NCBI GenBank assembly: GCA_001799615.1
Contig: MGTU01000008.1
Span: 62,001-126,000 of the forward strand
Direction of reading: 5' to 3'
Length of the DNA: 64,000 nucleotides
From: Elusimicrobia bacterium GWA2_61_42
GTDB lineage: Bacteria; Elusimicrobiota; Elusimicrobia; Elusimicrobiales; UBA9959
The notes beneath the pieces are model-generated. The model searched no databases. It was not told the origin of the DNA and saw nothing but the letters and a program-made list of their open reading frames with translations. This document shows positions 2,298 to 34,970 of this stretch, piece by piece (position 1 is the first letter of the stretch; each line of letters opens with the position of its first letter). The translations under genes were made by a program, and so were the position numbers.

Positions 2298-2978
2298 ATG
2301 AAACCAATTCTTACGGCTGAAAAGGCGGTTGAGGACATAAAGGACGGGGCCACGCTGATGGTGGCGGGCTTCATGGGCTGCGGCAACGCTTTCACCCTTA
2401 TCGACGCGCTCATCAACAAAGGCTCCAAGGCCCTCAACCTCATCACCAGCGACACGGCTTACCCGGAGGTGGGCGTGGGCAGGCTTATCTGCCAGAACCG
2501 CGCCGCTACGCTGACGGCCTCGCACATCGGCACCAACCCGGTTTCCGGCCAGAAAATGAACTCGGGCGAGCTCAAGGTGACGCTGGTCCCGCAGGGCACC
2601 TTCGCCGAGCGCATCCGCGCCAAGGGCGCGGGCCTGGGCGGCGTGCTCACCCCCACCGGCATAGGCACCGCCGTGGAGGAGGGCAAACAGAAGCTCAACC
2701 TTAACGGCAAGGATTACCTGCTGGAACTGCCGATGGGCGCGGACTTCGCCTTCATCAAGGCCGAAGTGGCCGACAAGTACGGCAACGCCTTCCTGCCCGG
2801 CGCCACCAAGAATATGGCCGTGGTCATGGCCATGGCCGCCGACCACGTCATCCTGGAAGCCGAGAAGATCGTGGAGCCCGGCGAGCTGGACCCGGAGAAG
2901 GTCACCATCCCCGGCATCTTCGTCTCGGCGATAGTCAAGTCCACCCTGCCGGCCGCCAACCTGCAGCTCAAACCCTGA
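2298..2978 (+). CDS. acetoacetate/butyrate-type CoA-transferase, subunit A
   Basis: 226 residues of the family I CoA-transferase alpha subunit (AtoD/CtfA-like), with the nucleotide-contacting segment VAGFMGCG near residues 22-29 and the family motif GGVLTPTGIGT in the middle. With subunit B it transfers CoA between acyl-CoA and carboxylate. In lysine fermentation the expected job is to activate acetoacetate released by Kce. It is the first gene of the operon, with an excellent ribosome site, and lies 18 bases before subunit B. The exact acyl partner (butyryl-CoA or acetyl-CoA) cannot be read from sequence. Confidence 0.9.
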   Translation: MKPILTAEKAVEDIKDGATLMVAGFMGCGNAFTLIDALINKGSKALNLITSDTAYPEVGVGRLICQNRAATLTASHIGTNPVSGQKMNSGELKVTLVPQGTFAERIRAKGAGLGGVLTPTGIGTAVEEGKQKLNLNGKDYLLELPMGADFAFIKAEVADKYGNAFLPGATKNMAVVMAMAADHVILEAEKIVEPGELDPEKVTIPGIFVSAIVKSTLPAANLQLKP

Positions 2979-2996
2979 ACCCAAAGGAGAATTTAA

Positions 2997-3656
2997 ATGG
3001 ACCCCAAAGAACTTAAAAGAGTCAGGCTGGTTAAGCGCATAGCGCAGGAATTCCCCGACGGCGCCCTGGTGAACCTGGGCATCGGCATGCCCACCATGGT
3101 GGCCAATTACATCCCCGAGGGCCGCACCATCCTGCTGCAGTCCGAGAACGGCTTCACCGGCCTCGGCCAGGCGGCGCAGAAAGGGAAGGAGGACCCGCGC
3201 GTAGTGAACGCCGGGGGCCAGCCGGTGACCATAGTGCCCGGCGGCGCTTTCTTCGACTCGGCCATGTCCTTCGCCATCATCCGCGGCGGGCACGTGGACT
3301 ACACGGTGCTGGGCGGGCTGGAAGTGGACATGGAAGGCAACCTGGCCAACTACATGATCCCCGGCAAGATGGTGCCCGGCATGGGCGGGGCAATGGACCT
3401 GGTAGCCGGGGCGAGGAACGTCATCGTCGCCATGGAGCACACCAGCAAGAACGGCGCCCCCAAGATCCTGAAGAAATGCTCGCTGCCGCTTACCGCCAAG
3501 GGCGAGGTTGACCTGATAGTGACAGACATGGCCTTCATCCGCGTAACCAAGAAAGGCCTGGTGCTGGAAGAGATAGCCGAAGACACCACGGTGGAAGAAG
3601 TCGTGAAAGCCACCGAAGCGCCGCTGCACATAGCGGGCAAACTCGGTAAATTCTAA
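2997..3656 (+). CDS. acetoacetate/butyrate-type CoA-transferase, subunit B
   Basis: 219 residues of the family I CoA-transferase beta subunit (AtoA/CtfB-like). The catalytic glutamate is E50 in the SENG motif, which forms the glutamyl-CoA thioester intermediate. The downstream family signature (EVDMEGNLANYMIPGK, then GMGGAMDLV) is intact and the length is normal. It lies between subunit A and kce in a tight run of genes, supporting a role in converting acetoacetate to acetoacetyl-CoA during lysine degradation. Confidence 0.92.
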   Translation: MDPKELKRVRLVKRIAQEFPDGALVNLGIGMPTMVANYIPEGRTILLQSENGFTGLGQAAQKGKEDPRVVNAGGQPVTIVPGGAFFDSAMSFAIIRGGHVDYTVLGGLEVDMEGNLANYMIPGKMVPGMGGAMDLVAGARNVIVAMEHTSKNGAPKILKKCSLPLTAKGEVDLIVTDMAFIRVTKKGLVLEEIAEDTTVEEVVKATEAPLHIAGKLGKF

Positions 3657-3665
3657 GGAGACCTT

Positions 3666-4481
3666 ATGGCTAATAAAATGGTTATAACCTGCGCCCTTAC
3701 CGGGGCGGAAACGACCAAGGCCCAGGCCCCGGCGCTGCCCGTTACGCCCGAGGAACTCGCCGCCGCCGCCGCCGAAGCCTGCGCGGCCGGCGCGTCCATA
3801 GTGCACCTGCATGCCAGGAACAACGACGGCACGCCCACCGCCGACGTGAAGGTTTTCAAGGCGGCCATCGACCTGATCCGCAAGAAATGCGACGTGGTCA
3901 TAGAGATCACCACCGGCGGCGCGGTAGGCATGACCCCGGAAGAGCGCATCGCCCCGGTCTCGCTGAAGCCCGACATGGCCTCGCTCGACTGCGGCACCGT
4001 GAATTTCGGCAACGACTATATCGTGAACACCCTGCCCATCATGCGGCAGTTCGCCTCGGAGATGAACAAGTACGGCGTGCGCCCCACGCTGGAATGCTTC
4101 GACGTGTCCCACGTGCAGTCCTCCCACATCCTCATCAAAGAAGGCCTGATAAAACCGCCCTACCATTACGGCTTCGTCATGAACGTGCCGGCGGCGCTTT
4201 CGCTCAGCGTTAAGACGCTGTCCTACATGATAGACCAGATGCCCCCGGAGAGCTTCTTCACGGTGATGGGCATCGGCCGCGGCCACCTGCCCGGCATCTG
4301 CGGGGCCATAGCCTCCGGCGGCTTCATCCGCGTGGGCTTCGAAGACAACATTTACTATTCCAAGGGCCGCCTGGCGGCGTCCAACGCCGAGTTCGTGGAA
4401 CGCGCCGTGCGCATCTCGCACGAGGCGGGCCTTGAGATAGCGAAACCTTCCGACGTCAGACAATTATTCAAAATCAAGTAA
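3666..4481 (+). CDS. kce: 3-keto-5-aminohexanoate cleavage enzyme
   Basis: 271 residues of the BKACE (DUF849) family. The zinc-binding VHLHAR motif is present (H47 and H49), as are the TCALTGAE N-terminus and the conserved IEITTGG strand. Kce condenses 3-keto-5-aminohexanoate with acetyl-CoA and cleaves it to 3-aminobutyryl-CoA plus acetoacetate. Other BKACE members act on different beta-keto acids, but the neighbours kdd and kamA to kamE make the lysine role secure. It starts 9 bases after the CoA-transferase B stop and sits 10 bases before the first kdd. Confidence 0.93.
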   Translation: MANKMVITCALTGAETTKAQAPALPVTPEELAAAAAEACAAGASIVHLHARNNDGTPTADVKVFKAAIDLIRKKCDVVIEITTGGAVGMTPEERIAPVSLKPDMASLDCGTVNFGNDYIVNTLPIMRQFASEMNKYGVRPTLECFDVSHVQSSHILIKEGLIKPPYHYGFVMNVPAALSLSVKTLSYMIDQMPPESFFTVMGIGRGHLPGICGAIASGGFIRVGFEDNIYYSKGRLAASNAEFVERAVRISHEAGLEIAKPSDVRQLFKIK

Positions 4482-4491
4482 GGAGACAACC

Positions 4492-5559
4492 ATGCCCACA
4501 AAAACCGAGATAGAAGTGAAGAAGAACGGAAACCCCTTCGGCTCGCACCGCGTCATAGAGCCCAAAGGCGTGCTCACGCAGCCTGCCACCAAAGTAGACA
4601 ACAACATGGACTACATGTGGGACAACGAGATCCTGGTAGAAGTGGAAACCCTCAATATCGACTCCGCCAGCTTTACGCAGCTCAAGAAGGAAGCCAATAA
4701 CGACGAAGAAAAAATAAAGGCCGCCATCGTCAAGATCGTGGGCGAGAAAGGCAAGATGCAGAACCCCGTCACCGGCTCCGGCGGCATGTTCCGCGGCAAG
4801 GTGCTTAAGATCGGCCCGGCCCTGAAAGGCAAGGTCGCCATAAAAGAAGGGGACAAGATCGCCAGCCTGGTCTCCCTTTCCCTGACCCCGCTGAAGATCG
4901 AGAAGGTCCTCGGCATAAAGAAAGGCACCGAGCAGGTGAGCGTGGTGGCCAAAGCCATCCTCTTCGAGAGCGGCATCTACGCCAAGCTGCCCTCCGACAT
5001 GTCCGAGACCCTGGCCCTGGCCGTGCTCGACGTGGCCGGCGCCCCGGCCCAGACCGCGAAGCTCGTGCGGCCCGGCAACACCGTGGTCATCATCGGCGCC
5101 GCCGGCAAATCCGGCGTGCTCTGCGCTTACGAAGCGCGCCGCCGCGCGGGCGTCACCGGCAAGATCATCGGCATCACCAGCTCCGATTCGGGCCTGGAGA
5201 AGATGAAGGAATACGGCTTCTGCCACGAGAACCTCAAGCTCAGCGCCACGGACGCGCTGTCCTGCTACGAGGCCATCAGCAAGCTCACCAACGGCAAGCT
5301 GGCCGACGTCATCATCAACTGCGTCAACATCCCCAACACGGAGATGGCGTCCATCCTGATGTGCCGCGACGGCGGGATCGTCTACTTCTTCACCATGGCC
5401 ACCTCGTTCACCAAGGCCGCGCTCGGCGCCGAAGGCGTGGGCAAGGACGTGGACATGATCATCGGCAACGGCTACGCCAAGGACCACGCCGAGATCACCC
5501 TGAACATCCTGCGCGAGTCCAAGCAGATCCGCGACATCTACACCAAGCTGTACGCGTAA
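4492..5559 (+). CDS. kdd: L-erythro-3,5-diaminohexanoate dehydrogenase, copy 1
   Basis: 355 residues. The NAD-binding loop GAAGKSG is at residues 202-208 in a medium-chain-dehydrogenase-like fold, with the conserved INCVNIPNTEMASIL stretch behind it. Kdd oxidatively deaminates 3,5-diaminohexanoate to 3-keto-5-aminohexanoate, giving NADH and ammonia. A second full-length copy of exactly the same length follows 24 bases downstream. By eye about two-thirds of positions are identical, with no gap needed. Most divergence lies in the N-terminal 30 residues and around residues 220-265. Confidence 0.93.
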   Translation: MPTKTEIEVKKNGNPFGSHRVIEPKGVLTQPATKVDNNMDYMWDNEILVEVETLNIDSASFTQLKKEANNDEEKIKAAIVKIVGEKGKMQNPVTGSGGMFRGKVLKIGPALKGKVAIKEGDKIASLVSLSLTPLKIEKVLGIKKGTEQVSVVAKAILFESGIYAKLPSDMSETLALAVLDVAGAPAQTAKLVRPGNTVVIIGAAGKSGVLCAYEARRRAGVTGKIIGITSSDSGLEKMKEYGFCHENLKLSATDALSCYEAISKLTNGKLADVIINCVNIPNTEMASILMCRDGGIVYFFTMATSFTKAALGAEGVGKDVDMIIGNGYAKDHAEITLNILRESKQIRDIYTKLYA

Positions 5560-5583
5560 GAGAACCTGACCGGAGACCGACTC

Positions 5584-6651
5584 ATGGGAAATAAAACAGC
5601 GCCCACAGTAAAGGCAGGCGGGAACCCGTTCGGAGCGCACCGCGTGCTGCTGCCGAAAGGGGGGCTGCCCCAGCCCGCCGTCAAAGTCGACAACTGCATG
5701 GACTACATCTACGACAACGAGATCCTCGTCGACGTGGACACGCTGAACATAGACTCCGCCAGCTTCACCCAGATCAAGGGTGAAGCCGGCGGGGACCATG
5801 AGAAGATCAAGAATTCGATACTCGCCATCGTGGCCGAGCGGGGGAAGATGCAGAACCCCGTGACCGGCTCTGGCGGCATGTTCATAGGCCGGGTGGCGAA
5901 GGTCGGCCCGGCGCTGGCGGGGAAAACGGACCTGAAGCCCGGCGACAAGATCGCCAGCCTGGTCTCCCTGTCCCTTACGCCGCTCAAGATCGACAGCATC
6001 ATAGGCATAAAGAAGGGCACCGAGCAGGTCAACGTAAAAGCGAAGGCCATCCTTTTCGAAAGCGGCATCTACGCCAGGATCCCGGCGGACATGCCGGAGA
6101 AGCTGGCGCTGGCCATCCTGGACGTGGCGGGCGCGCCGGCGCAGACAGCCAAGCTGGTGCGGCCCAACCAGGTGGTGGTGATAATCGGCGCGGCCGGGAA
6201 ATCCGGCCTGCTGTGCGCCTACGAGGCCCGCAAGATCGCCGGCGTGGCCGGCATCGTGGTCGGGCTGGAATATTCGAAAGAAGCGGTGAAGAAGGTAGAG
6301 GAATTCGGCTTCTGCCACAAGGTCATCCAGGCCAACGCCACCGACGCGCTGGACTGCTACGGCAAACTGATGAAGGCCACCGGCGGCAAGCTCGCCGACG
6401 TGGTCATAAACTGCGTCAACATCCCCAACACGGAGATGGCTTCGATCCTGATGTGCAAACACGAGGGGCTGGTCTACTTCTTCAGCATGGCCACCTCGTT
6501 CACGAAAGCCGCGCTGGGCGCCGAAGGCGCGGGCAAGGACATAACGATGCTGGTGGGCAACGGCTATACCCGGCACCACGCGGACACTACGCTCAACATC
6601 CTCAGGGAATCCCCGGTCATCCGGGCGGCGTACAAGAAGATGTACGCCTAG
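5584..6651 (+). CDS. kdd: L-erythro-3,5-diaminohexanoate dehydrogenase, copy 2
   Basis: 355 residues, the tandem paralogue of the preceding gene, with GAAGKSG also at residues 202-208. Both copies keep the long conserved blocks (GKMQNPVTGSGGMF, GDKIASLVSLSLTPLKI, AILFESGIYA), so neither looks degraded. Whether they form a mixed complex, differ in substrate or cofactor, or simply raise dosage cannot be told. It is followed 17 bases later by kamA, whose ATG has an AAGGAG ribosome site. Confidence 0.92.
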   Translation: MGNKTAPTVKAGGNPFGAHRVLLPKGGLPQPAVKVDNCMDYIYDNEILVDVDTLNIDSASFTQIKGEAGGDHEKIKNSILAIVAERGKMQNPVTGSGGMFIGRVAKVGPALAGKTDLKPGDKIASLVSLSLTPLKIDSIIGIKKGTEQVNVKAKAILFESGIYARIPADMPEKLALAILDVAGAPAQTAKLVRPNQVVVIIGAAGKSGLLCAYEARKIAGVAGIVVGLEYSKEAVKKVEEFGFCHKVIQANATDALDCYGKLMKATGGKLADVVINCVNIPNTEMASILMCKHEGLVYFFSMATSFTKAALGAEGAGKDITMLVGNGYTRHHADTTLNILRESPVIRAAYKKMYA

Positions 6652-6668
6652 ATCAAGGAGCAATCATT

Positions 6669-7937
6669 ATGAGAAAGTACACCAAGGTTGACTACAAGAA
6701 GGTCCCGCTCTGGAAGAACGTTCCGGAAAGCGACTGGTCCGATTACAAGTGGCAGCTGAAGAACGTCATAAAAGATATCCCGACGCTGGAGAAGGTGGCG
6801 GTGCTCAGCGCGCACGAGAAGACCGACCTCAAGGCCTGCCTGAAGAAATTCACCATGGCCATCACCCCCTATTACGCCGCGCTGATGGACAAGAAGGATA
6901 AGACCTGCCCGGTGCGCCTGCAGGCCATCCCCCGGGGCCAGGAGCTGATGAACGACCCCTCCGACCTTTCGGACCCGCTGCACGAGGACGTGGACTCCCC
7001 GGTGCCGGGCCTCACCCACCGCTACCCGGACCGCGTGCTGCTGCTGGTCACCAACATCTGCTCGATGAACTGCCGCCACTGCACCCGCCGCCGCCTGGTG
7101 GGCTTCGAGGACGTACACATGTCCACGGCCAACCTGGACAAGGCCATCGAGTACATCCGCAAGAACCGCGAAGTGCGCGACGTGCTGATCTCAGGCGGCG
7201 ACCCGCTGGTGCTCACCGACGAGATGCTGGAAGGCATTATAAAGAAGATCAGGGCGATCGACCATGTGGAGATCATCCGCCTGGGCACCCGCACGCCGGT
7301 AGTGATGCCGATGCGCATCACGGACAAGCTGGTGGGAATGCTCAAGAAGTACCATCCCATCTACGTCAACACTCATTTCAACCACCCCAAGGAAATGACC
7401 GCCGAAGCCTTCGAGGCCTGCCGCAAGCTGGCGGACGCCGGCATACCCGTGGGCAACCAGAGCGTGCTGCTCAAGGGCGTCAACGACTGCCCCCAGACCA
7501 TGAAGCGCCTGGTGCACGAACTGCTGATGTCGCGCGTGAAGCCGTACTATATCTACCAGTGCGACCTGTCCACCGGCATCAGCCACTTCCGCACCACGGT
7601 CTCCAAAGGCATCGAGATAATAGAGAACCTGCGCGGCCACACCACCGGCATGGCCGTCCCCACCTTCGTGGTGGACGCCCCCGGCGGCGGCGGCAAGACG
7701 CCGGTGATGCCGAACTACCTCATTTCCATGTCCGACAAGCGCGTGGTGCTCAGGAACTACGAAGGCGTGATCACGACGTACACCGAGCCTACCGGCTACG
7801 TGTCCTCCTGCGACCGCTGCGAGTACTGCGCGGACGAGGCCTATAAGCCCATAGACGGCGTGGCCAAGCTCCTCAACGGCGAGAAGCTGACGCTGGAGCC
7901 GGCCAACCTGATGCGGACCCGCCGGCACAGGAAATAG
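6669..7937 (+). CDS. kamA: L-lysine 2,3-aminomutase
   Basis: 422 residues. The radical-SAM motif is CSMNCRHC (C131, C135, C138). The PLP lysine is K343 in the GGGGK motif, and a C-terminal cysteine group (SSCDRCEYC) matches the zinc site of clostridial lysine 2,3-aminomutase. The enzyme moves the alpha amino group of L-lysine to C3 using SAM, PLP and a [4Fe-4S] cluster, the first step of the pathway. The open frame extends upstream through the kdd stop, but the ATG at 6669 has the ribosome site and gives the family N-terminus (YKKVPLWKNV). Confidence 0.95.
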   Translation: MRKYTKVDYKKVPLWKNVPESDWSDYKWQLKNVIKDIPTLEKVAVLSAHEKTDLKACLKKFTMAITPYYAALMDKKDKTCPVRLQAIPRGQELMNDPSDLSDPLHEDVDSPVPGLTHRYPDRVLLLVTNICSMNCRHCTRRRLVGFEDVHMSTANLDKAIEYIRKNREVRDVLISGGDPLVLTDEMLEGIIKKIRAIDHVEIIRLGTRTPVVMPMRITDKLVGMLKKYHPIYVNTHFNHPKEMTAEAFEACRKLADAGIPVGNQSVLLKGVNDCPQTMKRLVHELLMSRVKPYYIYQCDLSTGISHFRTTVSKGIEIIENLRGHTTGMAVPTFVVDAPGGGGKTPVMPNYLISMSDKRVVLRNYEGVITTYTEPTGYVSSCDRCEYCADEAYKPIDGVAKLLNGEKLTLEPANLMRTRRHRK

Positions 7938-7946
7938 CCCGAACCC

Positions 7947-8816
7947 ATGGATTTCATCAAGGGGCTCAAGGACAGGACCGTGTTCATCGTCGGCTCGAAG
8001 AAGAACGCCGGCAAGACCACGTTCATGAACTACGCCCTCAACCGCCTGCGCGGCACCGCCTGCGTCGGGGCGCTCAGCGTCGGGGTCGACGGGGAAGCGC
8101 AGGACCAGGTCTTCGGCAGCCCGAAGCCCCAGGTAAGGGCGGAGAAAGGCGACCTCCTGCTCTGCGCCGAAACCTCCCTGAAACACTCCGACCTGCACTA
8201 CGAGATACTCAACGTCTACCCGTTTTGCACCGCCATCGGGCGCCCGGTGCTGCTGCGGGCCCTGCGCCCGGGACGCGCCGAGATCTCAGGCCCGGAGAAC
8301 AACTCGCAGCTGGGGGAGATACTTGCCGACATGCGCCGCCACGGCGCCGGCACGGTCTTCATCGACGGGGCCGTGGACCGGATAACCCAGGTGGCGGCCG
8401 GGACGAAGGCCGCCTTCGTCTACGTAGCGAAGGTAGAACCGGAGAACCTGGACTCCGCCGCTGCCGCCATAAAGCTGCTGTGGGCCTCCGCGTCGGTCCC
8501 GCTGTGGCGCGAGGGGGAAAAGTGCCCCGCCCCGGTAACGCGGGTGGAAGGCGCGCTGACCCCCGGGAAGGTCCCGGGAAAAGAAGTGAAAGGCGGCACG
8601 CTGGTGATAGAGGACCTCACGAAGGTCTTCCTCTCCTGGGCCCAGTGGCAGGAGCTGAAGGGGCGCTTCGAACTGCGCTTCCGCGCCAAGCCGGACCTGG
8701 CGGCTTTCATAGTGAATCTTTATAACGTAACGCGGGCCGATTTCGAGAAGAAGCTGGGGTCGCCGCAGCTGGCGGACCGGGTGATCTACAACCCGTACGA
8801 GCTGACGCTGAACTAA
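7947..8816 (+). CDS. kamB: lysine 5,6-aminomutase reactivase subunit KamB
   Basis: 289 residues with a P-loop at residues 16-25 (GSKKNAGKTT). In lysine-fermentation clusters the gene between kamA and kamC is KamB, thought to act with the MutS-like KamC to reactivate the B12-dependent 5,6-aminomutase after cofactor damage. Here it has exactly that place, 9 bases after kamA and 1 base before kamC. The identification rests on gene order plus the P-loop; the rest of the sequence shows no motif I can name. Confidence 0.8.
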   Translation: MDFIKGLKDRTVFIVGSKKNAGKTTFMNYALNRLRGTACVGALSVGVDGEAQDQVFGSPKPQVRAEKGDLLLCAETSLKHSDLHYEILNVYPFCTAIGRPVLLRALRPGRAEISGPENNSQLGEILADMRRHGAGTVFIDGAVDRITQVAAGTKAAFVYVAKVEPENLDSAAAAIKLLWASASVPLWREGEKCPAPVTRVEGALTPGKVPGKEVKGGTLVIEDLTKVFLSWAQWQELKGRFELRFRAKPDLAAFIVNLYNVTRADFEKKLGSPQLADRVIYNPYELTLN

Positions 8817-8817
8817 C

Positions 8818-10413
8818 ATGGACAAAACGCGGGCTTTCGCCGAATTCGAAGATTTCTACTCCCTGTTCAGGCCGCTGACGCCTTACGGCCGGGTTTACCG
8901 GGAGGCCCGCCATTTCTTCGCGGACGCCGGGGCGCTCAAAACGGAGTACGACCTGACGGCGGCCATGCAGGCCTACCTTTCCGGGCAGCGCCACAAGGCG
9001 GACAAGCTGCGCTTCCACCTCCGCAACATCCCCGCGGTCGACCTGACGCCCGAGGCGCTCAACGGCGCGGCCGGCCTTTTCCTGGCCCGCAAATTCCTCG
9101 CCAATACCGCCGAGATCTTCAAACTCCTGCCGGCGCCCGTCAGGGCCCGCTTCGGCGCCCGCTGGGCCTCGGCCGAACTGCTGGCCCTCCTGAACAAAGG
9201 CGGCGGCGGCGAGGCCTTCCACATCGCCGACGCCTACTGCCCCGAGCTGGCCGCCGAACGCGCGGCCATAACCGCCTGCGACAAGGCGCTCAAAGCCCTG
9301 CGCGAGAAAAAACTGAAGACCCTGCGCGAGCGCTGGGGCCTGGATTTCACGGACCGGGACTTCCTGGTGATAGCCGAAAGCGCGGCGGCGCGGCTCAGCG
9401 CCGCACCGGAACTTTTCCTGGAGCCTTTCGACGGCTCCCGCGTGACGGTCAAGCCGGTTTACGGCCAGGATTACATGGAAGCCGCGGCCGAACGCGACCG
9501 CCGGCGCGGCCGCGAGCAGGAACTGGAAGCCGCCGTGGTCAAAAAGCTGGCCGCCGCTGCCGCCGCCGAAAAGAAGCCCATCGAAGGCTACGCCGCGGCC
9601 CTGGAGAAGATAGACGTGGCCGCGGAACGCGCGCGCCTGGCCTCGGAGCTGAAGCTCGCGCGGCCGCTGACGCGCAAATATCCTTCGGAGATACGCCTGG
9701 CGAAAGGCCGCTTCCTCCCGCTTGAAACCCGCCTGGCGGCCGCCGGGCTGAAATATACCCCGCTCTCCGCGGTCTTCGCCCGGCGGGTGAACATCCTCTA
9801 CGGGTCCAATATGGGCGGCAAGACCGTGGCGCTCAAGACGCTGGCCTTCCTGCAGCTGGCCGCCCAAAGCGGCTTCTTCGTCCCCGCGGCCTCGTTCGAG
9901 ACCTGCCTTTTCGACGGCCTGGCCTTCATCGGCGGGGCGGAAATGGAAACGGCGGGGGGGCTGAGCAGCTTCGGCCTGGAAATGAACGATTTCGTCGCCG
10001 CCCACGACAAGCTGAAGAGCGGCAGCCTGCTGCTGATGATGGACGAGTTCGCGCGCACTACCAATTCGGAAGAAGCCGCGGCGCTGCTCAGCGCCATCCT
10101 GGAGGACCTGGGGGCCAAGAAGTCCGCTTTCGCCTTCCTGGCCACGCATTTCTCGGGGCTGAAGACGGACAAGGGCGCCGCCAGCTTCAAGATGCGCGGG
10201 TTCGACACGGCGGCCTTCAACGAATACTTCTCGGGCAAGCCCGCCTGCGGCCTGGACGAGAAATTGAAGATGATAAACAAGTTCATGCGCTACGAACTGC
10301 TGGAAGGCGCGCAGGGCGGGGAAGCCAGGGACGCCATCAAGATAGCCGGCATACTCGGCGTGGCCAGGGGTATAATAAAGAAAGCCCAGGAATTTATGGA
10401 GGAGACCAAATGA
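8818..10413 (+). CDS. kamC: lysine 5,6-aminomutase reactivase ATPase KamC (MutS-like)
   Basis: 531 residues. The C-terminal half is a MutS-type ABC ATPase: Walker A GSNMGGKT at 329-336, Walker B ending D409-E410, then the MutS-typical ARTTNSEE segment. There is no mismatch-recognition domain, so this is not a repair MutS. The N-terminal half is alanine- and lysine-rich and probably helical (clamp-like). The kamB-kamC-kamD order identifies it as KamC. Its stop overlaps the kamD start (ATGA at 10410-10413), indicating translational coupling to the enzyme it would serve. Confidence 0.88.
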   Translation: MDKTRAFAEFEDFYSLFRPLTPYGRVYREARHFFADAGALKTEYDLTAAMQAYLSGQRHKADKLRFHLRNIPAVDLTPEALNGAAGLFLARKFLANTAEIFKLLPAPVRARFGARWASAELLALLNKGGGGEAFHIADAYCPELAAERAAITACDKALKALREKKLKTLRERWGLDFTDRDFLVIAESAAARLSAAPELFLEPFDGSRVTVKPVYGQDYMEAAAERDRRRGREQELEAAVVKKLAAAAAAEKKPIEGYAAALEKIDVAAERARLASELKLARPLTRKYPSEIRLAKGRFLPLETRLAAAGLKYTPLSAVFARRVNILYGSNMGGKTVALKTLAFLQLAAQSGFFVPAASFETCLFDGLAFIGGAEMETAGGLSSFGLEMNDFVAAHDKLKSGSLLLMMDEFARTTNSEEAAALLSAILEDLGAKKSAFAFLATHFSGLKTDKGAASFKMRGFDTAAFNEYFSGKPACGLDEKLKMINKFMRYELLEGAQGGEARDAIKIAGILGVARGIIKKAQEFMEETK

Positions 10414-11981
10414 CACCGGTAAAAAGCAAACTAGGACTTTCCCCGACCAAGATAGCCAAAGCCCGCAAGCTGGCCGCCGAAATAACGGCCCCGGTGCAGG
10501 AATTCATCGACACGCACACCACCGTGACCATAGAGCGCGCCACGCTGCGCCTGCTGGGCGCCGACGGCGCGAACGCCGACGGCGTGCCGGTGCCCAACCT
10601 GATAGCCCAGGCCTGCGCCGATAAACTGGCCGGCGGCGCCTCGGTGTTCTACGTCAACGCGCTGGTCAAGCTGGCCAAGACCCCGGCGGAGCTGAACAAA
10701 GAGATAGAGAAAGGCCTGGACATCTCCAAGCTGGAGCTGACCGACAGCCGGCATATCCAGAAAAAAGCCGACGAGCTTATTAAAGGCACGGACGCCCGCA
10801 TAGCCGGCAACGTGGCCCACCGCAACGCCCAGCTCAAGCTCTCCAAGGACAGGATCAAGTCCCCTATGATCTACGTCATAGTGGCCACGGGCAACATTTA
10901 CGAGGACGTGAAGCAGGCGCAGGCGGCCGCCCACCAGGGCGCCGACATCATCGCCGTGATCCGCACCACCGGCCAGAGCCTGCTGGACTACGTACCCTAC
11001 GGCCCCACCACCGAAGGCTTCGGCGGCACCTACGCCACGCAGGAGAACTTCCGCATCATGCGCAAGGCGCTCGACGAGACCGGTGAGAAGGAGGGCCGCT
11101 ACATCCGCCTGGTGAACTACTGCTCCGGCCTCTGCATGCCCGAGATCGCCGCCATGGGCGCGCTGGAGCGCCTGGACATGATGCTCAACGACTCGATGTA
11201 CGGCATCCTGTTCCGCGACATCAACATGTACCGCACCTTCACCGACCAGTTCTTCTCCCGCATGATCAACACCGCGGCCGACATCATCATCAACACCGGC
11301 GAGGACAACTACCTCACCACCTCGGACGCCGTGGAGAAGGCGCATACCGTGCTGGCCAGCCAGTTCCTCAACGAGAAGTTCGCCGCCAACACCGGCATGC
11401 CCAACCGCCTGATGGGCCTGGGGCACGCCTTCGAGATCAACCCCGACGTCAAGAACGGCTTCCTGTACGAATACGCGCAGGCCCTGATGGCCAGGGAGAT
11501 CTTCCCCGAGCACCCGCTCAAATACATGCCCCCGACCAAGTTCATGACCGGCGACATCTTCAAGGGCCTGGCCATGAACACGCTGTTCAACTTCGTCTGC
11601 AAGGCCACCGGCCAGGGCATAGCTTTGCTGGGCATGCTGACCGAGGCCATCCATACGCCCTACCTGCAGGACCGGCACCTCGCCATAGATAACGCCCTGT
11701 ACGTGCACAATACCATGGAAGGCTTCAAGGACGAGATAGAGTTCAAGAAGGACGGCATCATGGCCCGCCGCGCCCGCCAGGTGCTGGACGAGACCACCAG
11801 TTTCCTGTCCGAAGTAAAAGCGCAAGGCCTGTTCAAGGCCATAGAGACCGCCATGTTCGCCGAGATCAAGCGCCCGCGCGACGGCGGCAAAGGCTTCGAC
11901 GGCGTCTACGAGAAGACCGCCGACTACTGGAACCCGGTAGAGACCTACCTTAAAAAGAAACTGAAGATAGCCGGTAAATAG
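10410..11981 (+). CDS. kamD: lysine 5,6-aminomutase, alpha subunit
   Basis: 523 residues, the normal length for the large TIM-barrel subunit of lysine 5,6-aminomutase. It begins with the family N-terminus (LGLSPTKIAKARKLA) and carries the conserved RTTGQSLLDYVPYGPTTEGFGGT block that binds PLP and substrate. With KamE it shifts the epsilon amino group of L-beta-lysine to C5 using adenosylcobalamin and PLP. Leucine codons are mostly CTG (about 33 CTG to 9 CTC by hand count), the opposite of kamE and the following gene. Confidence 0.95.
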   Translation: MTPVKSKLGLSPTKIAKARKLAAEITAPVQEFIDTHTTVTIERATLRLLGADGANADGVPVPNLIAQACADKLAGGASVFYVNALVKLAKTPAELNKEIEKGLDISKLELTDSRHIQKKADELIKGTDARIAGNVAHRNAQLKLSKDRIKSPMIYVIVATGNIYEDVKQAQAAAHQGADIIAVIRTTGQSLLDYVPYGPTTEGFGGTYATQENFRIMRKALDETGEKEGRYIRLVNYCSGLCMPEIAAMGALERLDMMLNDSMYGILFRDINMYRTFTDQFFSRMINTAADIIINTGEDNYLTTSDAVEKAHTVLASQFLNEKFAANTGMPNRLMGLGHAFEINPDVKNGFLYEYAQALMAREIFPEHPLKYMPPTKFMTGDIFKGLAMNTLFNFVCKATGQGIALLGMLTEAIHTPYLQDRHLAIDNALYVHNTMEGFKDEIEFKKDGIMARRARQVLDETTSFLSEVKAQGLFKAIETAMFAEIKRPRDGGKGFDGVYEKTADYWNPVETYLKKKLKIAGK

Positions 11982-11992
11982 CTGGAGACCCT

Positions 11993-12730
11993 ATGTTCAT
12001 AAAACCTTACGGCGACACATCCAACGACGGCGCGGTGCAGCTTTCCTTCACCCTGCCCGTCAAGAACTGCGGCAGGGCCAAAGAGGCCGCCAGGCTCTAC
12101 GTGCAGAAACTCGGCTTCCAGAAAGTCGACGTAGTCCACGCAGCCGCCCTCTCCGAAGAATTCACCTTCTTCGTAGCCTACGGCAAGACCGAAACGGGCA
12201 TAGACTACGACAAAGTGGAATACGCCGAAGCCGTCGACAAATACATGTCCATGGACGAGATCAACGAGTTCATAAAGACCAACTTCAAGCGCAAGCTGGT
12301 CATCATCGGCGCCTGCACCGGCACCGACGCCCACACCGTGGGCATAGACGCCATCATGAACATGAAAGGCTACAACCACCACTTCGGCCTGGAGCGCTAC
12401 CCCATGATAGAAGCCCTCAACATGGGCTCCCAGGTCCCCAACGAGAAGATCCTCGCCAAAGCCAAAGAACTCAAAGCCGACGCCGTCCTCGTCTCCCAGA
12501 TAGTCACCCAGAAAGACGTGCACATCAAGAACCTCACCGAGCTCATAGAGCTCGCCGAGGCCGAGAAAATGCGCGGCAAAACCCTCCTCGTAATGGGCGG
12601 CCCCCGCGTCAACAACAAACTGGCCAAAGAGCTCGGCTACGACGCCGGCTTCGGCACCGGCACCTACGCCGAACACGTAGCCACTTTCGTAGTAAAAAAA
12701 CTCTACGAGCGAATGACGAGTAAGAAGTAG
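11993..12730 (+). CDS. kamE: lysine 5,6-aminomutase, beta (B12-binding) subunit
   Basis: 245 residues. The cobalamin-binding motif DAHTVG places the axial histidine at H114. K125, eleven residues later, matches the spacing of the H133/K144 pair in the Clostridium sticklandii enzyme, so it should carry the PLP. The C-terminal Rossmann-like domain ends with the GGPRVNN segment that cups the corrin. It lies 11 bases after kamD with a GGAGA ribosome site. It uses CTC rather than CTG for leucine (14 to 4 by hand count), unlike kamD beside it. Confidence 0.95.
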   Translation: MFIKPYGDTSNDGAVQLSFTLPVKNCGRAKEAARLYVQKLGFQKVDVVHAAALSEEFTFFVAYGKTETGIDYDKVEYAEAVDKYMSMDEINEFIKTNFKRKLVIIGACTGTDAHTVGIDAIMNMKGYNHHFGLERYPMIEALNMGSQVPNEKILAKAKELKADAVLVSQIVTQKDVHIKNLTELIELAEAEKMRGKTLLVMGGPRVNNKLAKELGYDAGFGTGTYAEHVATFVVKKLYERMTSKK

Positions 12731-12754
12731 CTGTCAGCAGGTAAGCGACCCGGA

Positions 12755-12885
12755 GCCGGACGCAGGGACCGGGTTAGCAAAACCCTGCCGGAAGCCCGAG
12801 CTTGCGTAAGCGCGAGGGCTGAGGCGGGGAAGGGCAAGCACGGTGTGCGCGACCCTGTTTTTGCGTTCCGGTCCCTGTGGCCGGC
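12755..12885. repeat. multi-hairpin element bounded by an 18-bp inverted repeat
   Basis: Bases 12755-12772 pair with 12868-12885 over 18 positions with one mismatch and one G-U. Three smaller hairpins lie inside: 12771-12785 (GGGTT/AACCC), 12793-12820 (AGCCC/GGGCT with an inner GCTT/AAGC) and 12831-12856 (AGGG/CCCT around GCAC/GTGC), then a short T run at 12858-12862. This fills most of the 200-base gap between kamE and the aminotransferase. It could be a MITE-like mobile repeat, an mRNA processing or attenuation structure, or a structured RNA. I found no cobalamin or lysine riboswitch signature in it. Confidence 0.6.
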
Positions 12886-12930
12886 GCAGGCAGACTTATT
12901 TACGAGAAAGCGGACAAAGGAGCTAATATA

Positions 12931-14175
12931 ATGGCTGAACATCTTAAACTCGACAACTCGGAGCGGCTTTATAAGGAAGCCCAGGAACTCATACCCGGCG
13001 GCATGATGGGCATACGCCGCCCGTATAACTTCGTCCCCGGCGAATACCCCATCTTCTTCGACTCCGCCAAAGGCGGCAAAGTCACCGACGCCGACGGCAA
13101 CGAATACCTCGACATGCTCTGCGCCTACGGCCCCATCATCATCGGCCACCGCGAACGCGAGATCGACGCCGCCGTCATCAAACAGATAAAAGAAAAAGGC
13201 TTCTGCATGTCCATCGTGCAGGAAGTCCAGAACACCCTAGCCAAAAAAGTCATCTCCCTCGTGCCCTCCGCCGAGAAAGTCGTCTTCACCAAGACCGGCT
13301 CCGACTCCACCACCCTCGCCACCCGCATAGCCCGCGCCTTCACCAACAAGCCCAAGATCATCCGCTGCGGCTACCACGGCTGGGCCGACTGGTGCGTGGA
13401 AGGTAAAGGCGGCGTGCTGCCCAAGACCTACGAGGACACCCTCGAGTTCGAATACAACGACCTCCAGCAGCTCGAAGACCTCCTCAAGGCCAACCCCGGC
13501 CAGGTCGCCGGCATCATAGTCACCCCCATAGGCCACCCCAACGCCCACGAAGTCCAGATGCCCAAGCCCGGCTTCCTCGAAGGCGCGAAGAAACTGGCCG
13601 AAGCGCACGGCACTGTGCTCATCTTCGACGAGATCCGCACCGGCTTCCGCGTCAGCATGGGCGGCGCGCAGAAACTCTTCGGTGTAACCCCGCACATGTC
13701 CGTGTTCGGCAAAGCCATGGCCAACGGCTACGAAATAAGCATGGTCGCCGGCCGCAAGGACATCATGGACGTCCTGATCAGCAAAGCCTTCGTCAGCTCC
13801 ACCTACTTCAACAACACCCTGCCCATGGTGGCCGCCCTCAAGACCATGGAAATACTCGAGCGCGACAACATGCTGGACGTCATAGCGAAGCGCGGCCACG
13901 CCTTCTGCAAAAAAGTCCGCAAGCACGTTAAAGCCAGCGGCCTGGCCGTGCAGTTCACCGGCGAGCCCTGGATGCCCTACATCACCTTCGACAAGGACGA
14001 GACCGGCGCCTATAAGAAGACCCGCGTGAACTTCTACACCCAGCTCATCCGCCGCAAAGTCTTCCTGCAGCCCTATCACCACGGCTACGTAGCCTACAGG
14101 CATTCCGTAAAGGACCTCAACTACGCCGCCGACATGATAGCCGAGTCGCTGGAAGAGGCCAAGAAAGCGGCCTGA
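12931..14175 (+). CDS. class III (GSA-like) aminotransferase, probable 3-aminobutyryl-CoA transaminase (Kat-type)
   Basis: 414 residues of the fold-type I class III aminotransferase family, closest in appearance to glutamate-1-semialdehyde aminomutases. The PLP lysine is K261 (VFGK) and the ring-binding aspartate is D233 in IFDEIRTGFR. The start has an AAAGGAG ribosome site at 12916-12922. It ends the lysine operon, and no kal deaminase gene is present. In Candidatus Cloacamonas acidaminovorans an aminotransferase in this setting converts 3-aminobutyryl-CoA to acetoacetyl-CoA, so that role is inferred here. A heme-pathway HemL function is less likely because no other hem gene is near. Confidence 0.8.
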   Translation: MAEHLKLDNSERLYKEAQELIPGGMMGIRRPYNFVPGEYPIFFDSAKGGKVTDADGNEYLDMLCAYGPIIIGHREREIDAAVIKQIKEKGFCMSIVQEVQNTLAKKVISLVPSAEKVVFTKTGSDSTTLATRIARAFTNKPKIIRCGYHGWADWCVEGKGGVLPKTYEDTLEFEYNDLQQLEDLLKANPGQVAGIIVTPIGHPNAHEVQMPKPGFLEGAKKLAEAHGTVLIFDEIRTGFRVSMGGAQKLFGVTPHMSVFGKAMANGYEISMVAGRKDIMDVLISKAFVSSTYFNNTLPMVAALKTMEILERDNMLDVIAKRGHAFCKKVRKHVKASGLAVQFTGEPWMPYITFDKDETGAYKKTRVNFYTQLIRRKVFLQPYHHGYVAYRHSVKDLNYAADMIAESLEEAKKAA

Positions 14176-14183
14176 CCCGCCTT

Positions 14184-14218
14184 GAGCCCTGCGGGGGGGC
14201 AAAGACCCCGCAGGGCTC
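14184..14218 (+). terminator. strong hairpin ending the lysine operon
   Basis: A perfect 13-bp stem (14184-14196 with 14206-14218) and a 9-base loop lie 8 bases after the aminotransferase stop. There is no long T run after it, so it may act as a 3' end stabiliser or a weak intrinsic terminator. Confidence 0.6.
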
Positions 14219-14233
14219 TAAAGGCGCCGACAA

Positions 14234-16688: not shown

Positions 16689-16827
16689 ATATACTTTTTA
16701 AAGCACCAAGCGCGACTTCCGGCAGCCAGAACAGACCCTTAGCGCTGAACCATGCGGCACCCGACGGGTGCGCAGCACGATTCGGAAACCAGGCCAGCCC
16801 GCCGCGCACAATCACCCCGGAGGTTCT

Positions 16828-17031
16828 ATGCCGAAGATGGAAGTTGACGTGGATAAGTGCAAGGGCTGCTACCTGTGCATACAGGTCTGCCCCAAGAAGT
16901 GCATCGAAAAATCCGATAAATTCTCCAAGACCGGCTATTACCCGGCCAGGGACTCCAAGGAAGGCTGCTGCATAGCGTGTCTGGCTTGCGCGCGCATCTG
17001 CCCCGACCTTGCAATTAAGGTCTATAAATAA
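16828..17031 (+). CDS. 2-oxoacid:ferredoxin oxidoreductase, delta (4Fe-4S ferredoxin) subunit
   Basis: 67 residues with two complete [4Fe-4S] motifs of the CxxCxxCxxxC type (CKGCYLCIQVC and CIACLACARIC). Located immediately before the alpha subunit gene with a GGAGG ribosome site, it matches the small ferredoxin-like delta subunit of four-subunit KOR/VOR enzymes. It should pass electrons from the beta subunit cluster to free ferredoxin. Confidence 0.88.
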   Translation: MPKMEVDVDKCKGCYLCIQVCPKKCIEKSDKFSKTGYYPARDSKEGCCIACLACARICPDLAIKVYK

Positions 17032-17043
17032 GGAGGCATGATC

Positions 17044-18132
17044 ATGGCTGAAAAAAAATTAATGAAAGGCAACGAAGCCCTGGCCGAAGGCGCCATCCGC
17101 GCCGGCTGCAGGTTCTTCGCCGGTTACCCCATAACCCCCCAGAACGAGATCCCGGAATACATGTCCTGGCGCCTGCCGCAGGTAGGCGGGGCTTTCGTGC
17201 AGTCCGAGAGCGAAGTCTCGGCGATAAACATGGTTTACGGCGCGGCCGCCACCGGCGTGCGCAGCATGACCTCTTCTTCCAGCCCCGGCATGAGCCTCAA
17301 GCAGGAAGGCATGTCCTACTGCGCCGGCGCCGACCTCCCCGTTTTCATCGGCAACGTGATGCGCGGCGGGCCCGGCCTCGGCAACATAGCCGGCGCCCAG
17401 GGCGACTACTGGCAGGCCACCCGCGGCGGCGGCCACGGCGACTACCGCACCTTCGTGATGGCGCCCAACTCCGTCAGCGAAATGGCCAACTTCCCGCACA
17501 AGTGCTACGAAGTGGCCTTTAAATACCGCATCCCCTCCATGGTGCTGGCCGACGGCATCATAGGCCAGATGATGGAGCCCGTAGAATTCAAGAACCCCGA
17601 AGTCGACGTCAAGAAGCTTGTGGAGCCCGACTGGGCTCTGGGCGTTAACCACGGCCGCGCCAAGCGCATCGTCAAATCCTACGACCTGCGCGAAGGCTAC
17701 CTGGAAGTGATGGTCAACGAGCGCGTGAAGCGCTACAAGCAGATAGAGGCCAACGAGACCATGTACGAGGAAAAGATGATGGACGACGCCGAGATCGCCA
17801 TAGTGGCTTACGGCACCTCGGCCCGCGTCTCCGTGGCGGCCATGAAGCTGGCCCGCGAAAAGGGCCTGAAGGTCGGGCTGTTCCGCCCGATAACCCTGTG
17901 GCCTTTCCCGAAGGCCCGCCTGGTGGAGCTGTCCAAGCGCATAAAGAAATTCCTGGTGGTGGAGATGAGCCTGGGCCAGATGGTCGAGGACGTACAGCTG
18001 GCCATGAACGGCCGCGCGGAAGTCCACCTGCACGCCAAGCCCGGCGCCTCGGTGATGACCGCCGAAGAAGTGTACAAGACGATGGACGCCATCGTGAAAA
18101 AGGGGGCCAAAGAATATGCAGCTGCTAAATAA
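17044..18132 (+). CDS. 2-oxoacid:ferredoxin oxidoreductase, alpha subunit (KorA/VorB-like)
   Basis: 362 residues. The N-terminal pyrimidine-binding half contains the AGYPITPQNEIPEYM and ESEVSAINMVYGAAATG signatures of this superfamily. The C-terminal half starts near the EIAIVAYGTSAR segment. Two in-frame ATGs exist; the one at 17044 is chosen because it lies 7 bases after AGGAGG, while 17038 is only 1 base away. The complex oxidatively decarboxylates a branched-chain 2-oxoacid or 2-oxoglutarate to acyl-CoA with reduction of ferredoxin. Sequence alone does not let me choose the substrate. Confidence 0.9.
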   Translation: MAEKKLMKGNEALAEGAIRAGCRFFAGYPITPQNEIPEYMSWRLPQVGGAFVQSESEVSAINMVYGAAATGVRSMTSSSSPGMSLKQEGMSYCAGADLPVFIGNVMRGGPGLGNIAGAQGDYWQATRGGGHGDYRTFVMAPNSVSEMANFPHKCYEVAFKYRIPSMVLADGIIGQMMEPVEFKNPEVDVKKLVEPDWALGVNHGRAKRIVKSYDLREGYLEVMVNERVKRYKQIEANETMYEEKMMDDAEIAIVAYGTSARVSVAAMKLAREKGLKVGLFRPITLWPFPKARLVELSKRIKKFLVVEMSLGQMVEDVQLAMNGRAEVHLHAKPGASVMTAEEVYKTMDAIVKKGAKEYAAAK

Positions 18133-18877: not shown

Positions 18878-18891
18878 CGGAGGACTTTAAA

Positions 18892-33531: not shown

Positions 33532-34884
33532 TCAGTGCTTGGCCGCGTGCTGCGCGTCGACGGCCACCTTCGCCAGCGCCGGCTTCTTGACGCACTGCTT
33601 GGCGAAAGCGTCGTCCCGCAGCTTGTTGCGGTAGTCCGGGTGCTGGAAGGTGTAGTCGAAGCGGGTGTGGATGTCGTAGGAGCCGTTCATCAGGCCCACC
33701 ACGTCCTCCACGAACACCCTCTCCTCGTCGGTGGGGATCACGAACACCTTCACCTTGGAGGTTTTGCACGAGATCTCGGTCTCGGAGTTGCGGGTCTTGG
33801 AGATGTCGTTCTTCTCCGGGTCCAGTTTGATGCCCATGAACTCCAGGCCGGTAAGGGCCCCGGCGCGGGTAAGCGGGCCCATCTCGCCGACGCCGGCGGT
33901 GAACACCACCGCGTCGATGCCGCCCACTTCGGCCGCGTAGGCGCCGATGTATTTCTTTATGCGGTTGGCTTCCATGTCCAGCGCCAGCTGCGAGCGGGCG
34001 TCGCCCTGCTCGGCGGCCAGCTCCACGTCGCGGGCGTCGCTGTACTTGCCGGTGATGGCCAGTTTGCCGGACTTCTTATTGAGGATGCCGTCCATCTCGC
34101 CGGGGTTCAGGCTCTCGCGGGCCATTACGTAGAGCGGGATGGCCGGGTCGTGGTCGCCGGCGCGGGTGCCCATCACCAGGCCTTCGAGGGGGGTGAAACC
34201 CATGCTGGTGTCGTAGGAGAGGCCGTTCTTGACCGCGTTGACCGAGGCGCCGTTGCCGATGTGGCAGATGACGAGGTTGGTCTGGAAGGGGTCCTTGCCC
34301 AGCAGCACGGCGGCGCGCTTGGCGGTATAGAGGAACGAGGTGCCGTGGAAGCCGTAGCGGCGGATAGCGTACTTCTCGTACCACGCGCGGGGCAGCGCGT
34401 ACATGTAGGAGGACTCCGGCATGGTCTGGTGCCAGGCGGTGTCCATGATGGCCATGTGGGGGATCTTGGGCATCAGCGCGCGGGCGGCCTCTATGCCCTG
34501 GATATTGGGCGGGTTGTGCAGCGGGGCCAGGGAGGACAGTTCGCGGAAAGTCTCTACGATCTTATCGTCGATGATGGCGGATTTTACGAATTTTTCGCCG
34601 CCGTGCACCACGCGGTGGCCTACGGCGGCGATGCCGTCGAGGCTGTCTATGACGCCGTGCTCCTTGTGCGTCAGGGTGTTGATGACCAGCTGGATGGCGT
34701 CCTTATGGGTGGGGCAGTCCTGGTTGACGGTGACCTTCTCGCGGCCGGGGGCCTCGATGTTGATGAACGAGGCGCCGATACCTACACGCTCGACCAGGCC
34801 GGAAGCCACGGTCATCTTGGCCTGCCAGTCGAAAAGCAGGTACTTCACGGAAGAGCTGCCGCAGTTAAGGCACAGTATTTTCAT
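33532..34884 (-). CDS. ackA: acetate kinase
   Basis: 450 residues. The start at 34884 (MKILCLNCGSSSVKY) is the family N-terminus with the phosphate-binding NxGSSS element; the 24 codons ahead of it in frame have no homology and the real ATG has a GGGGA ribosome site. FHGTSFLY, HIGNGASVNAV and the VVFTAGVGE adenosine-binding motif are present. It makes ATP from acetyl phosphate. After the usual C-terminal VFVIPTDEER segment there are about 55 extra residues, so the protein is longer than the roughly 400 typical of the family. Confidence 0.93.
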   Translation of the reverse strand: MKILCLNCGSSSVKYLLFDWQAKMTVASGLVERVGIGASFINIEAPGREKVTVNQDCPTHKDAIQLVINTLTHKEHGVIDSLDGIAAVGHRVVHGGEKFVKSAIIDDKIVETFRELSSLAPLHNPPNIQGIEAARALMPKIPHMAIMDTAWHQTMPESSYMYALPRAWYEKYAIRRYGFHGTSFLYTAKRAAVLLGKDPFQTNLVICHIGNGASVNAVKNGLSYDTSMGFTPLEGLVMGTRAGDHDPAIPLYVMARESLNPGEMDGILNKKSGKLAITGKYSDARDVELAAEQGDARSQLALDMEANRIKKYIGAYAAEVGGIDAVVFTAGVGEMGPLTRAGALTGLEFMGIKLDPEKNDISKTRNSETEISCKTSKVKVFVIPTDEERVFVEDVVGLMNGSYDIHTRFDYTFQHPDYRNKLRDDAFAKQCVKKPALAKVAVDAQHAAKH

Positions 34885-34970
34885 GTTGGTCCCCTTTGTG
34901 TAGTCGGTCAAAACTTTATAGTATTCTACAAAATTACTGAACGCCCGTTTTTTCAAGGATTCACTTTTTT

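What the first reader, a model, noticed from the sequence alone, without database searches (positions are those of the whole stretch)
2298..14175. Lysine fermentation operon ends with an aminotransferase instead of kal
All genes for lysine to 3-aminobutyryl-CoA are here (kamA, kamD, kamE, kdd, kce) plus kamB and kamC, but the kal deaminase is missing. A class III aminotransferase takes the last place. An acyl-CoA beta-transaminase (Kat) in a kal-less lysine operon is established for Candidatus Cloacamonas acidaminovorans. Here it would yield acetoacetyl-CoA and glutamate rather than crotonyl-CoA and ammonia, which changes the redox balance. The two acetoacetate-level products could both feed thiolysis to acetyl-CoA, with ATP through acetate kinase, rather than butyrate.
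Basis: partly seen in the sequence, partly recalled or inferred. Interest (0 to 1): 0.7.

Follow-up and report, generated by a model that had tools for sequence, protein, structure and literature searches.

The report
Kat-type lysine fermentation operon
An Elusimicrobiota bacterium carries a gene cluster for fermenting lysine in which the usual ammonia-releasing enzyme appears to be replaced by an aminotransferase, a known but rarely reported variant here extended to another bacterial phylum.

Summary
Window 2298-14175 is a one-direction cluster atoDA-kce-kdd1-kdd2-kamABCDE-kat in an Elusimicrobiota genome. No kal match was found in the 94.8%-complete assembly (no positive control). The 414-residue aminotransferase is not HemL (253 bits, cut-off 527). 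It lies in a separate supported clade with Cloacimonadota proteins 63-65% identical to it and lacks HemL's long loop. In a sample of 294 phylum genomes kamD occurs in 33, Kat in 34, both in 32; none has kal over the cut-off. Clade members also lie in lysine gene clusters of Oligoflexia and Lokiarchaeota. Acetate rather than butyrate is partly supported: thiolase and acetate kinase are present, and the only crotonase-family match is methylmalonyl-CoA decarboxylase. But two acyl-CoA dehydrogenase/Etf clusters exist, phosphotransacetylase was not searched, and glutamate dehydrogenase is seen only as a contig-end fragment. Verdict: new member of a known kind, of moderate interest.

The parts
2298..2978 (+). 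atoD-like 3-oxoacid CoA-transferase subunit A
   Evidence: TIGR02429 204.8 bits, cut-off 128.5
2997..3656 (+). atoA-like 3-oxoacid CoA-transferase subunit B
   Evidence: TIGR02428 307.6 bits, cut-off 243.6
3666..4481 (+). [quoted passage not shown]
   Evidence: NF052387 380.9 bits, just under cut-off 382; Pfam BKACE
4492..5559 (+). kdd1, 3,5-diaminohexanoate dehydrogenase
   Evidence: NF052381 262.5 bits, cut-off 200
5584..6651 (+). kdd2, second 3,5-diaminohexanoate dehydrogenase, 70% identical to kdd1
   Evidence: NF052381 268.2 bits; identity
6669..7937 (+). kamA, lysine 2,3-aminomutase
   Evidence: TIGR03820 606 bits, cut-off 525.4 (scanned from 6663); ATG
7947..8816 (+). kamB, lysine 5,6-aminomutase reactivase subunit (divergent)
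   Evidence: NF052386 157 bits, under cut-off 210; position between kamA and kamC
8818..10413 (+). kamC, MutS-like reactivase ATPase
   Evidence: NF052383 314 bits, cut-off 300
10410..11981 (+). kamD, lysine 5,6-aminomutase alpha
   Evidence: NF052384 808 bits, cut-off 600
11993..12730 (+). kamE, lysine 5,6-aminomutase beta (B12-binding)
   Evidence: NF052385 382 bits, cut-off 280
12931..14175 (+). kat, 3-aminobutyryl-CoA aminotransferase (class III, PLP)
   Evidence: Pfam Aminotran_3; TIGR00713 HemL 253 bits under cut-off 527; clade and signatures
14178..14226 (+). strong hairpin after the kat stop, possible end of the operon
   Evidence: fold of 14173-14230: -40 kcal/mol, z -4.96; no T run, and one search lists no terminator-like site here
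33532..34911 (-). acetate kinase, outside the operon
   Evidence: PF00871 468 bits at C8:95709-96881 = window 33709-34881; ORF

Best explanation
A lysine-fermentation operon of the Kat type. [quoted passage not shown] The last enzyme moves the amino group of 3-aminobutyryl-CoA to 2-oxoglutarate, giving acetoacetyl-CoA and glutamate. AtoDA turns acetoacetate plus acetyl-CoA into a second acetoacetyl-CoA. A thiolase encoded elsewhere splits both to acetyl-CoA, and acetate kinase makes ATP. Glutamate dehydrogenase would regenerate 2-oxoglutarate. My balance (inference): lysine + 4 H2O -> 3 acetate + 2 NH3 + 2 H2 or equivalents, about 2 ATP if phosphotransacetylase is present. Shown: genes, order, no detectable kal, clade, co-occurrence. 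Inferred: substrate, direction, products. The confidence is for Kat acting in lysine fermentation, not for the end products.
For: Operon genes by curated models. Not HemL: 253 bits against 527, while E. coli HemL scores 684 and a same-genus HemL (L149) 605. The tree of 59 of 94 collected sequences puts 25 Kat rows (chosen by identity; among them the window, three Cloacimonadota, six Lokiarchaeota) on one side of a branch with SH-aLRT 98, apart from the clade with E. coli HemL and 2gsa. The stretch between YHG and the following YN/FN is 23-26 residues in the 8 Kat rows measured and 35 in the 8 HemL-clade rows measured. Co-occurrence in a sample of 294 genomes: kamD 33, Kat 34, both 32; Kal over cut-off 0; even weak Kal matches in 0 of the 33. 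Of 34 loci (of 79) with kamE and kat matches on the + strand, kat follows kamE in 31: within 323 bases in 29 and within 30 in 17; of the two wider ones, L058 has only a 43-residue kamE piece. In the other 3 (Lokiarchaeota) kat lies about 10 kb before kamE at the head of the cluster. Cloacamonas and Bacteroidetes Kat were assayed in PMC3149608. Thiolase, acetate kinase, glutamate dehydrogenase fragment.
Against: No activity data. PMC3149608 reports a 60%-identical protein in NaphS2, which lacks the lysine genes, and four loci here (L072, L076, L077, L078; 60-61% identical) show no kam gene in the DNA held, so identity alone does not fix function. The short loop is not unique to Kat: L086, L143 and FumI have it too. 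The kamE-kat gap is 200 bases in this genome. Two Kat genomes (G082; G168 with a partial gene) had no kamD match and one kamD genome (G267, 78% complete) no Kat match. Glutamate dehydrogenase is only an 87-residue end fragment. The Kal and KamD models had no positive control genome.
Confidence: 0.88

Rival explanations
1. The aminotransferase is HemL (glutamate-1-semialdehyde aminomutase) lying by chance after the lysine operon, and 3-aminobutyryl-CoA is deaminated by an unrecognised lyase.
For: Best NCBIfam hits are HemL-type models. The fold search ranks GSAM entries first. The Kat genes of the 2011 work had been annotated as HemL.
Against: Under half the HemL cut-off; outside the HemL clade; 12-residue loop shorter, and against the two HemL rows of A1 (L149, E. 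coli) the positions that I take for GSAM Ser29 and Glu406 (numbers and roles recalled) are Gly27 and His383 in all 22 Kat rows; linked to kam genes in several phyla and to kamD in 32 of 33 sampled Elusimicrobiota genomes. A same-genus genome without kamD (G110) has a separate true HemL (L149).
Confidence: 0.04
2. The enzyme is Kat, but acetoacetyl-CoA is also reduced to butyryl-CoA, so the end products include butyrate as in classical lysine fermentation. (Differs from the best explanation only in the end products.)
For: Two acyl-CoA dehydrogenase genes, each followed by genes that read as EtfB and EtfA (one EtfA scanned, under its cut-offs), and one 3-hydroxyacyl-CoA dehydrogenase homologue. 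AtoDA and a relative of butyryl-CoA:acetate CoA-transferase, below cut-off, could release butyrate. PMC3149608 proposed this end as one option for Cloacamonas, with unidentified steps.
Against: The only crotonase-family match is a methylmalonyl-CoA decarboxylase (381 bits, cut-off 257); the 3-hydroxyacyl-CoA dehydrogenase is under every cut-off listed; one acyl-CoA dehydrogenase lies directly after a gene that reads as glutamate formimidoyltransferase (named from sequence), suggesting another role. MaoC-type hydratases were not searched.
Confidence: 0.3
3. The enzyme acts on another beta-amino acyl-CoA and serves a different pathway as well as, or instead of, lysine.
For: Kat accepted N-acetylcysteamine thioesters of beta-homoleucine and beta-phenylalanine in vitro (PMC3149608); clade members occur without kam genes in the DNA held (L064, L065, L070, L072, L076, L078).
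Against: Several of these sit beside a kce gene (L064, L065), so lysine remains likely; in sampled Elusimicrobiota the link to kamD is nearly complete.
Confidence: 0.06

Closest known systems
Kat of Ca. Cloacamonas acidaminovorans (CLOAM0809) and Bacteroidetes DIG1_60031 (Perret 2011, PMC3149608)
   Same: HemL-like class III aminotransferase where kal is absent; at the kal locus of the lysine cluster in the Bacteroidetes contig; other Cloacimonadota homologues are 63-65% identical to the window protein
   Different: Elusimicrobiota host; kat follows kamE; two kdd genes; assay not done; CLOAM0809 itself not compared
Classical kal lysine fermentation (Fusobacterium nucleatum, Clostridium; as described in PMC3149608)
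   Same: lysine 2,3- and 5,6-aminomutases, Kdd, Kce and an acetoacetate CoA-transferase step
   Different: no kal detected; aminotransferase instead; ammonia from this step ends in glutamate
HemL / GSAM (E. coli HemL, PDB 2gsa)
   Same: class III PLP fold, about 30% identity
   Different: loop 12 residues longer in HemL; separate clade; score under half of the HemL cut-off
FumI aminopentol aminotransferase (PDB 6hbs/6hbv)
   Same: best phmmer hit among solved structures, same short loop
   Different: acts on a fumonisin product, not a CoA ester (recalled); very long branch in the tree, place unsure

Membership tests
Kat (3-aminobutyryl-CoA aminotransferase) | class III PLP aminotransferase with the PLP lysine | tested here: met
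   PF00202; K261, taken as the PLP lysine by alignment with HemL, invariant in 26 rows
Kat (3-aminobutyryl-CoA aminotransferase) | about 60% or more identity to an assayed Kat | tested here: inconclusive
   63-65% to three full-length Cloacimonadota homologues; the assayed sequence was not held
Kat (3-aminobutyryl-CoA aminotransferase) | in a genome with the lysine fermentation genes and no kal | tested here: met
   32 of 33 kamD genomes have Kat
Kat (3-aminobutyryl-CoA aminotransferase) | activity on 3-aminobutyryl-CoA with 2-oxoglutarate | not testable with these tools
   needs enzyme assay
HemL | score over the curated HemL cut-off | tested here: not met
   253.1 bits against 527.3; E. coli HemL 683.9
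HemL | inside the HemL clade | tested here: not met
   tree
Classical lysine fermentation | kal present | tested here: not met
   0 matches in own genome; 0 of 294 over cut-off, 68 weak; no positive control genome in the set
Kat-type pathway to acetate | acetoacetyl-CoA thiolase and acetate kinase | tested here: met
   thiolase C3:54411, 475 bits against TIGR01930 cut-off 240.6; acetate kinase in window
Kat-type pathway to acetate | phosphotransacetylase | not tested
Kat-type pathway to acetate | glutamate dehydrogenase to recycle 2-oxoglutarate | tested here: inconclusive
   C-terminal 87 residues at end of contig C7

The most novel reading that the evidence does not exclude
Kat-type lysine fermentation is the usual form in lysine-fermenting Elusimicrobiota and recurs in Oligoflexia and Lokiarchaeota. 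With no crotonase it runs fully oxidatively to three acetates, ammonia and hydrogen instead of butyrate, so it would depend on hydrogen removal; the [FeFe] hydrogenase genes about 10 kb upstream would be its electron outlet.
Probability: 0.4. Interest if true: 0.5.

Novelty: new member of a known kind. Interest (0 to 1): 0.33.

Why it matters
In 2011 Kat was reported from one digester metagenome, in two phyla, plus one homologue outside. The survey here places Kat-like genes in lysine gene clusters of many Elusimicrobiota, in two Oligoflexia MAGs and in Lokiarchaeota contigs, so annotators should not call them HemL. It also makes a clear product prediction (acetate and H2, not butyrate) that can be tested in enrichments.

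Tried and rejected
Considered and rejected: HemL (score, clade, loop); a hidden kal (models NF052388 and NF052389 on the own genome; NF052388 on a sample of 294 genomes). A crotonase for a butyrate route looked possible from the Pfam hit, but NCBIfam named it methylmalonyl-CoA decarboxylase. The kdd tree contained four wrong-frame rows (L034 second copy, L051, both L053 rows), so only the 70% identity of the window pair is used from it. The predicted monomer model (mean pLDDT 77; under 50 at 25-38, 62-74 and 150-166; Foldseek rmsd 11-16 A) was too weak around the active site to say more than class III fold nearest GSAM, FumI and similar. The plasmid collection gave 1504 records, none at 60% identity or more. 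A promoter-like site lies at 2208-2237 before atoD, but such sites are barely above chance here (6 against 3.4). Paper searches: Elusimicrobia with lysine, fermentation and aminotransferase (7 papers; passages of the one on Endomicrobia genomes, PMC11257099, concern biosynthesis; the other 6 judged by title), Elusimicrobiota with amino acid fermentation (5; one opened for passages) and Elusimicrobia with aminomutase (0). Papers holding Kat terms are not about Elusimicrobia by title and abstract; PMC5227965, PMC9966250 and PMC9403272 were not opened. The library holds open-licence papers only, and the Elusimicrobia genome paper I recalled was not held., meant to find lysine fermentation in Asgard archaea, gave no paper on it among the 10 of 66 and 12 of 20,777 listed.
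Full report
What is there. Window 2298-14175 holds eleven genes in one direction: atoD, atoA, kce, kdd1, kdd2, kamA, kamB, kamC, kamD, kamE and a class III aminotransferase. Gaps are -4 to 24 bases, except 200 bases before the aminotransferase. Its stop is followed by a strong hairpin (-40 kcal/mol, z -4.96) without a T run; the terminator scan lists nothing there. The window is contig C8:62001-126000 of a 2.95 Mb assembly, 94.8% complete and 3.5% contaminated. Named relatives 85-93% identical in the aminotransferase are Elusimicrobia or Elusimicrobiales MAGs or MAGs named only as bacterium.

Kal is not found. The Kal model had no match at E<=0.001 in the genome, and the fused Kal/Kce model matched only through positions 165-437 of 440, mainly its Kce part. 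No control genome scored over the Kal cut-off (5 of 14 matched below it), so this absence has no positive control. The genome has two class III aminotransferases by Pfam: one on C25 and this one.

The aminotransferase is Kat-like, not HemL. HemL scores 253 bits against a cut-off of 527; E. coli HemL scores 684 and the HemL of a same-genus genome (L149) 605. In a quick maximum-likelihood tree of 59 of 94 collected sequences, the 25 rows chosen as Kat by identity (11 Elusimicrobiota or unnamed relatives including the window, three Cloacimonadota, six Lokiarchaeota, two Oligoflexia, two Coprothermobacterota and one deltaproteobacterial protein) form one side of a branch with SH-aLRT 98. E. coli HemL, 2gsa and several Elusimicrobiota rows lie in another clade. 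Among the 22 rows of alignment A2, GIRRPYNFV (27-35) is invariant, and so is FLQPxHHGY (378-386) but for position 382. The stretch between YHG and the next YN/FN is 23-26 residues in the 8 Kat rows measured and 35 in the 8 HemL-clade rows measured; it is also short (23-26) in L086, L143 and FumI, so it separates from HemL but does not define Kat. Positions that I take for GSAM Ser29 and Glu406 (numbers and roles recalled; compared with two HemL rows) are Gly27 and His383 in the Kat rows. The predicted model is too weak at the active site to add detail.

Context across genomes. In a sample of 294 phylum genomes, Kat-clade matches of 63% identity or more occur in 34 (two only as partial genes, two split over contigs) and kamD in 33; 32 have both. 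Kat alone is in G082 and G168, kamD alone in G267 (78% complete). No genome passes the Kal cut-off; weak Kal matches (68 genomes, best 34 bits against 160) occur in none of the 33. These genomes are related, so the counts are not independent. Of the 79 loci (best 80 of 121 stretches), 34 had both kamE and kat matches on the + strand. Kat follows kamE in 31: within 323 bases in 29 and within 30 in 17. The two wider ones are L048 (1,803) and L058 (3,461, where the kamE match is only a 43-residue piece and no other kam gene was matched). In 3 Lokiarchaeota it heads the cluster about 10 kb before kamE. In L061 (Oligoflexia) the + strand order is kdd, a kamB-like gene (named from sequence), kamC-like, kamD, kamE, kat, kce, then after one opposite-strand frame a thiolase; kamA lies on the other strand at 36% identity. 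In L066 (Lokiarchaeota) kat is followed by kce, kdd, kamA, kamB, kamD and kamE, with other frames between and no kamC match; KamA, KamD and Kce pass their cut-offs. Kal was not searched in these other phyla.

Prior knowledge. Perret et al. 2011 (PMC3149608; I read the whole of Results and Discussion) purified Kat from Ca. Cloacamonas acidaminovorans: Km 4.3 uM for 3-aminobutyryl-CoA, 2-oxoglutarate preferred over pyruvate. They showed a second from a Bacteroidetes genome, and proposed a route in which AtoDA makes a second acetoacetyl-CoA. They also noted a 60%-identical protein in NaphS2, which lacks lysine genes, so identity alone does not prove function. They could not find crotonase or 3-hydroxybutyryl-CoA dehydrogenase in C. 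acidaminovorans. Passages of PMC8397731 assign putative Kat and Kal to some Thaumarchaeota without the key pathway enzymes. I saw only a reference-list entry in PMC8542988, and passages of PMC8473912, PMC13200544 and PMC11257099.

What follows for this organism. One thiolase, beside a CoA-transferase-family gene, and acetate kinase at 33532-34911 could take acetoacetyl-CoA to acetate and ATP; phosphotransacetylase was not searched. Glutamate dehydrogenase is seen only as its last 87 residues at the end of contig C7. About 10 kb upstream on the contig are a NuoF-like gene, a gene reading as NuoE (named from sequence), [FeFe]-hydrogenase genes and two radical SAM genes that I take for HydE and HydG. 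The single crotonase-family match is methylmalonyl-CoA decarboxylase; the one clear 3-hydroxyacyl-CoA dehydrogenase homologue is under all listed cut-offs; two acyl-CoA dehydrogenase-Etf clusters exist. So a standard path to crotonyl-CoA is not visible, much the same gap as reported for Cloacamonas, and acetate plus hydrogen is the simpler reading. In a draft genome this is inference.

Verdict. The finding is real and correctly read in its main point. The kind is known; I found no report of it in this phylum in an open-licence library.

Noticed in passing
window 4492-6651: Tandem kdd genes, 70% identical; both copies also matched in 8 of the named loci (L034, L037, L038, L040, L050, L053, L057, L081), while other relatives show one.
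   Followed up: partly
L066, L071, L075, L079, L080, L082, L101: Lokiarchaeota contigs with a Kat-clade gene together with kce, kdd and kamA (kamB, kamD, kamE where the contig reaches), no kamC match: a candidate archaeal Kat-type lysine fermentation.
   Followed up: partly
L064, L065, L068, L070, L073: kat next to kce with no kam gene in the DNA held (at most 10 kb each side) in Cloacimonadota and Lokiarchaeota.
   Followed up: partly
L058:6387-11236: An Elusimicrobia contig (same place as G082) with kat but only a 43-residue kamE match and no other kam gene matched; looks like loss of the pathway with kat kept.
   Followed up: partly
L132:12945-14981 (upstream of the window): [FeFe]-hydrogenase domain fused to a histidine kinase, next to a hydrogenase gene cluster.
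   Followed up: partly
L136:9715-13412: Second acyl-CoA dehydrogenase cluster, followed by genes reading as EtfB and EtfA, directly after a gene that reads as glutamate formimidoyltransferase (named from sequence only).
   Followed up: no
window 16768-19431: A 2-oxoacid:ferredoxin oxidoreductase (vor-type) cluster lies after the operon; matched in 27 of 33 Elusimicrobiota-like loci; 4 of the 6 misses end within 5 kb of kat. Its alpha subunit passes the VorB subfamily cut-off.
   Followed up: partly
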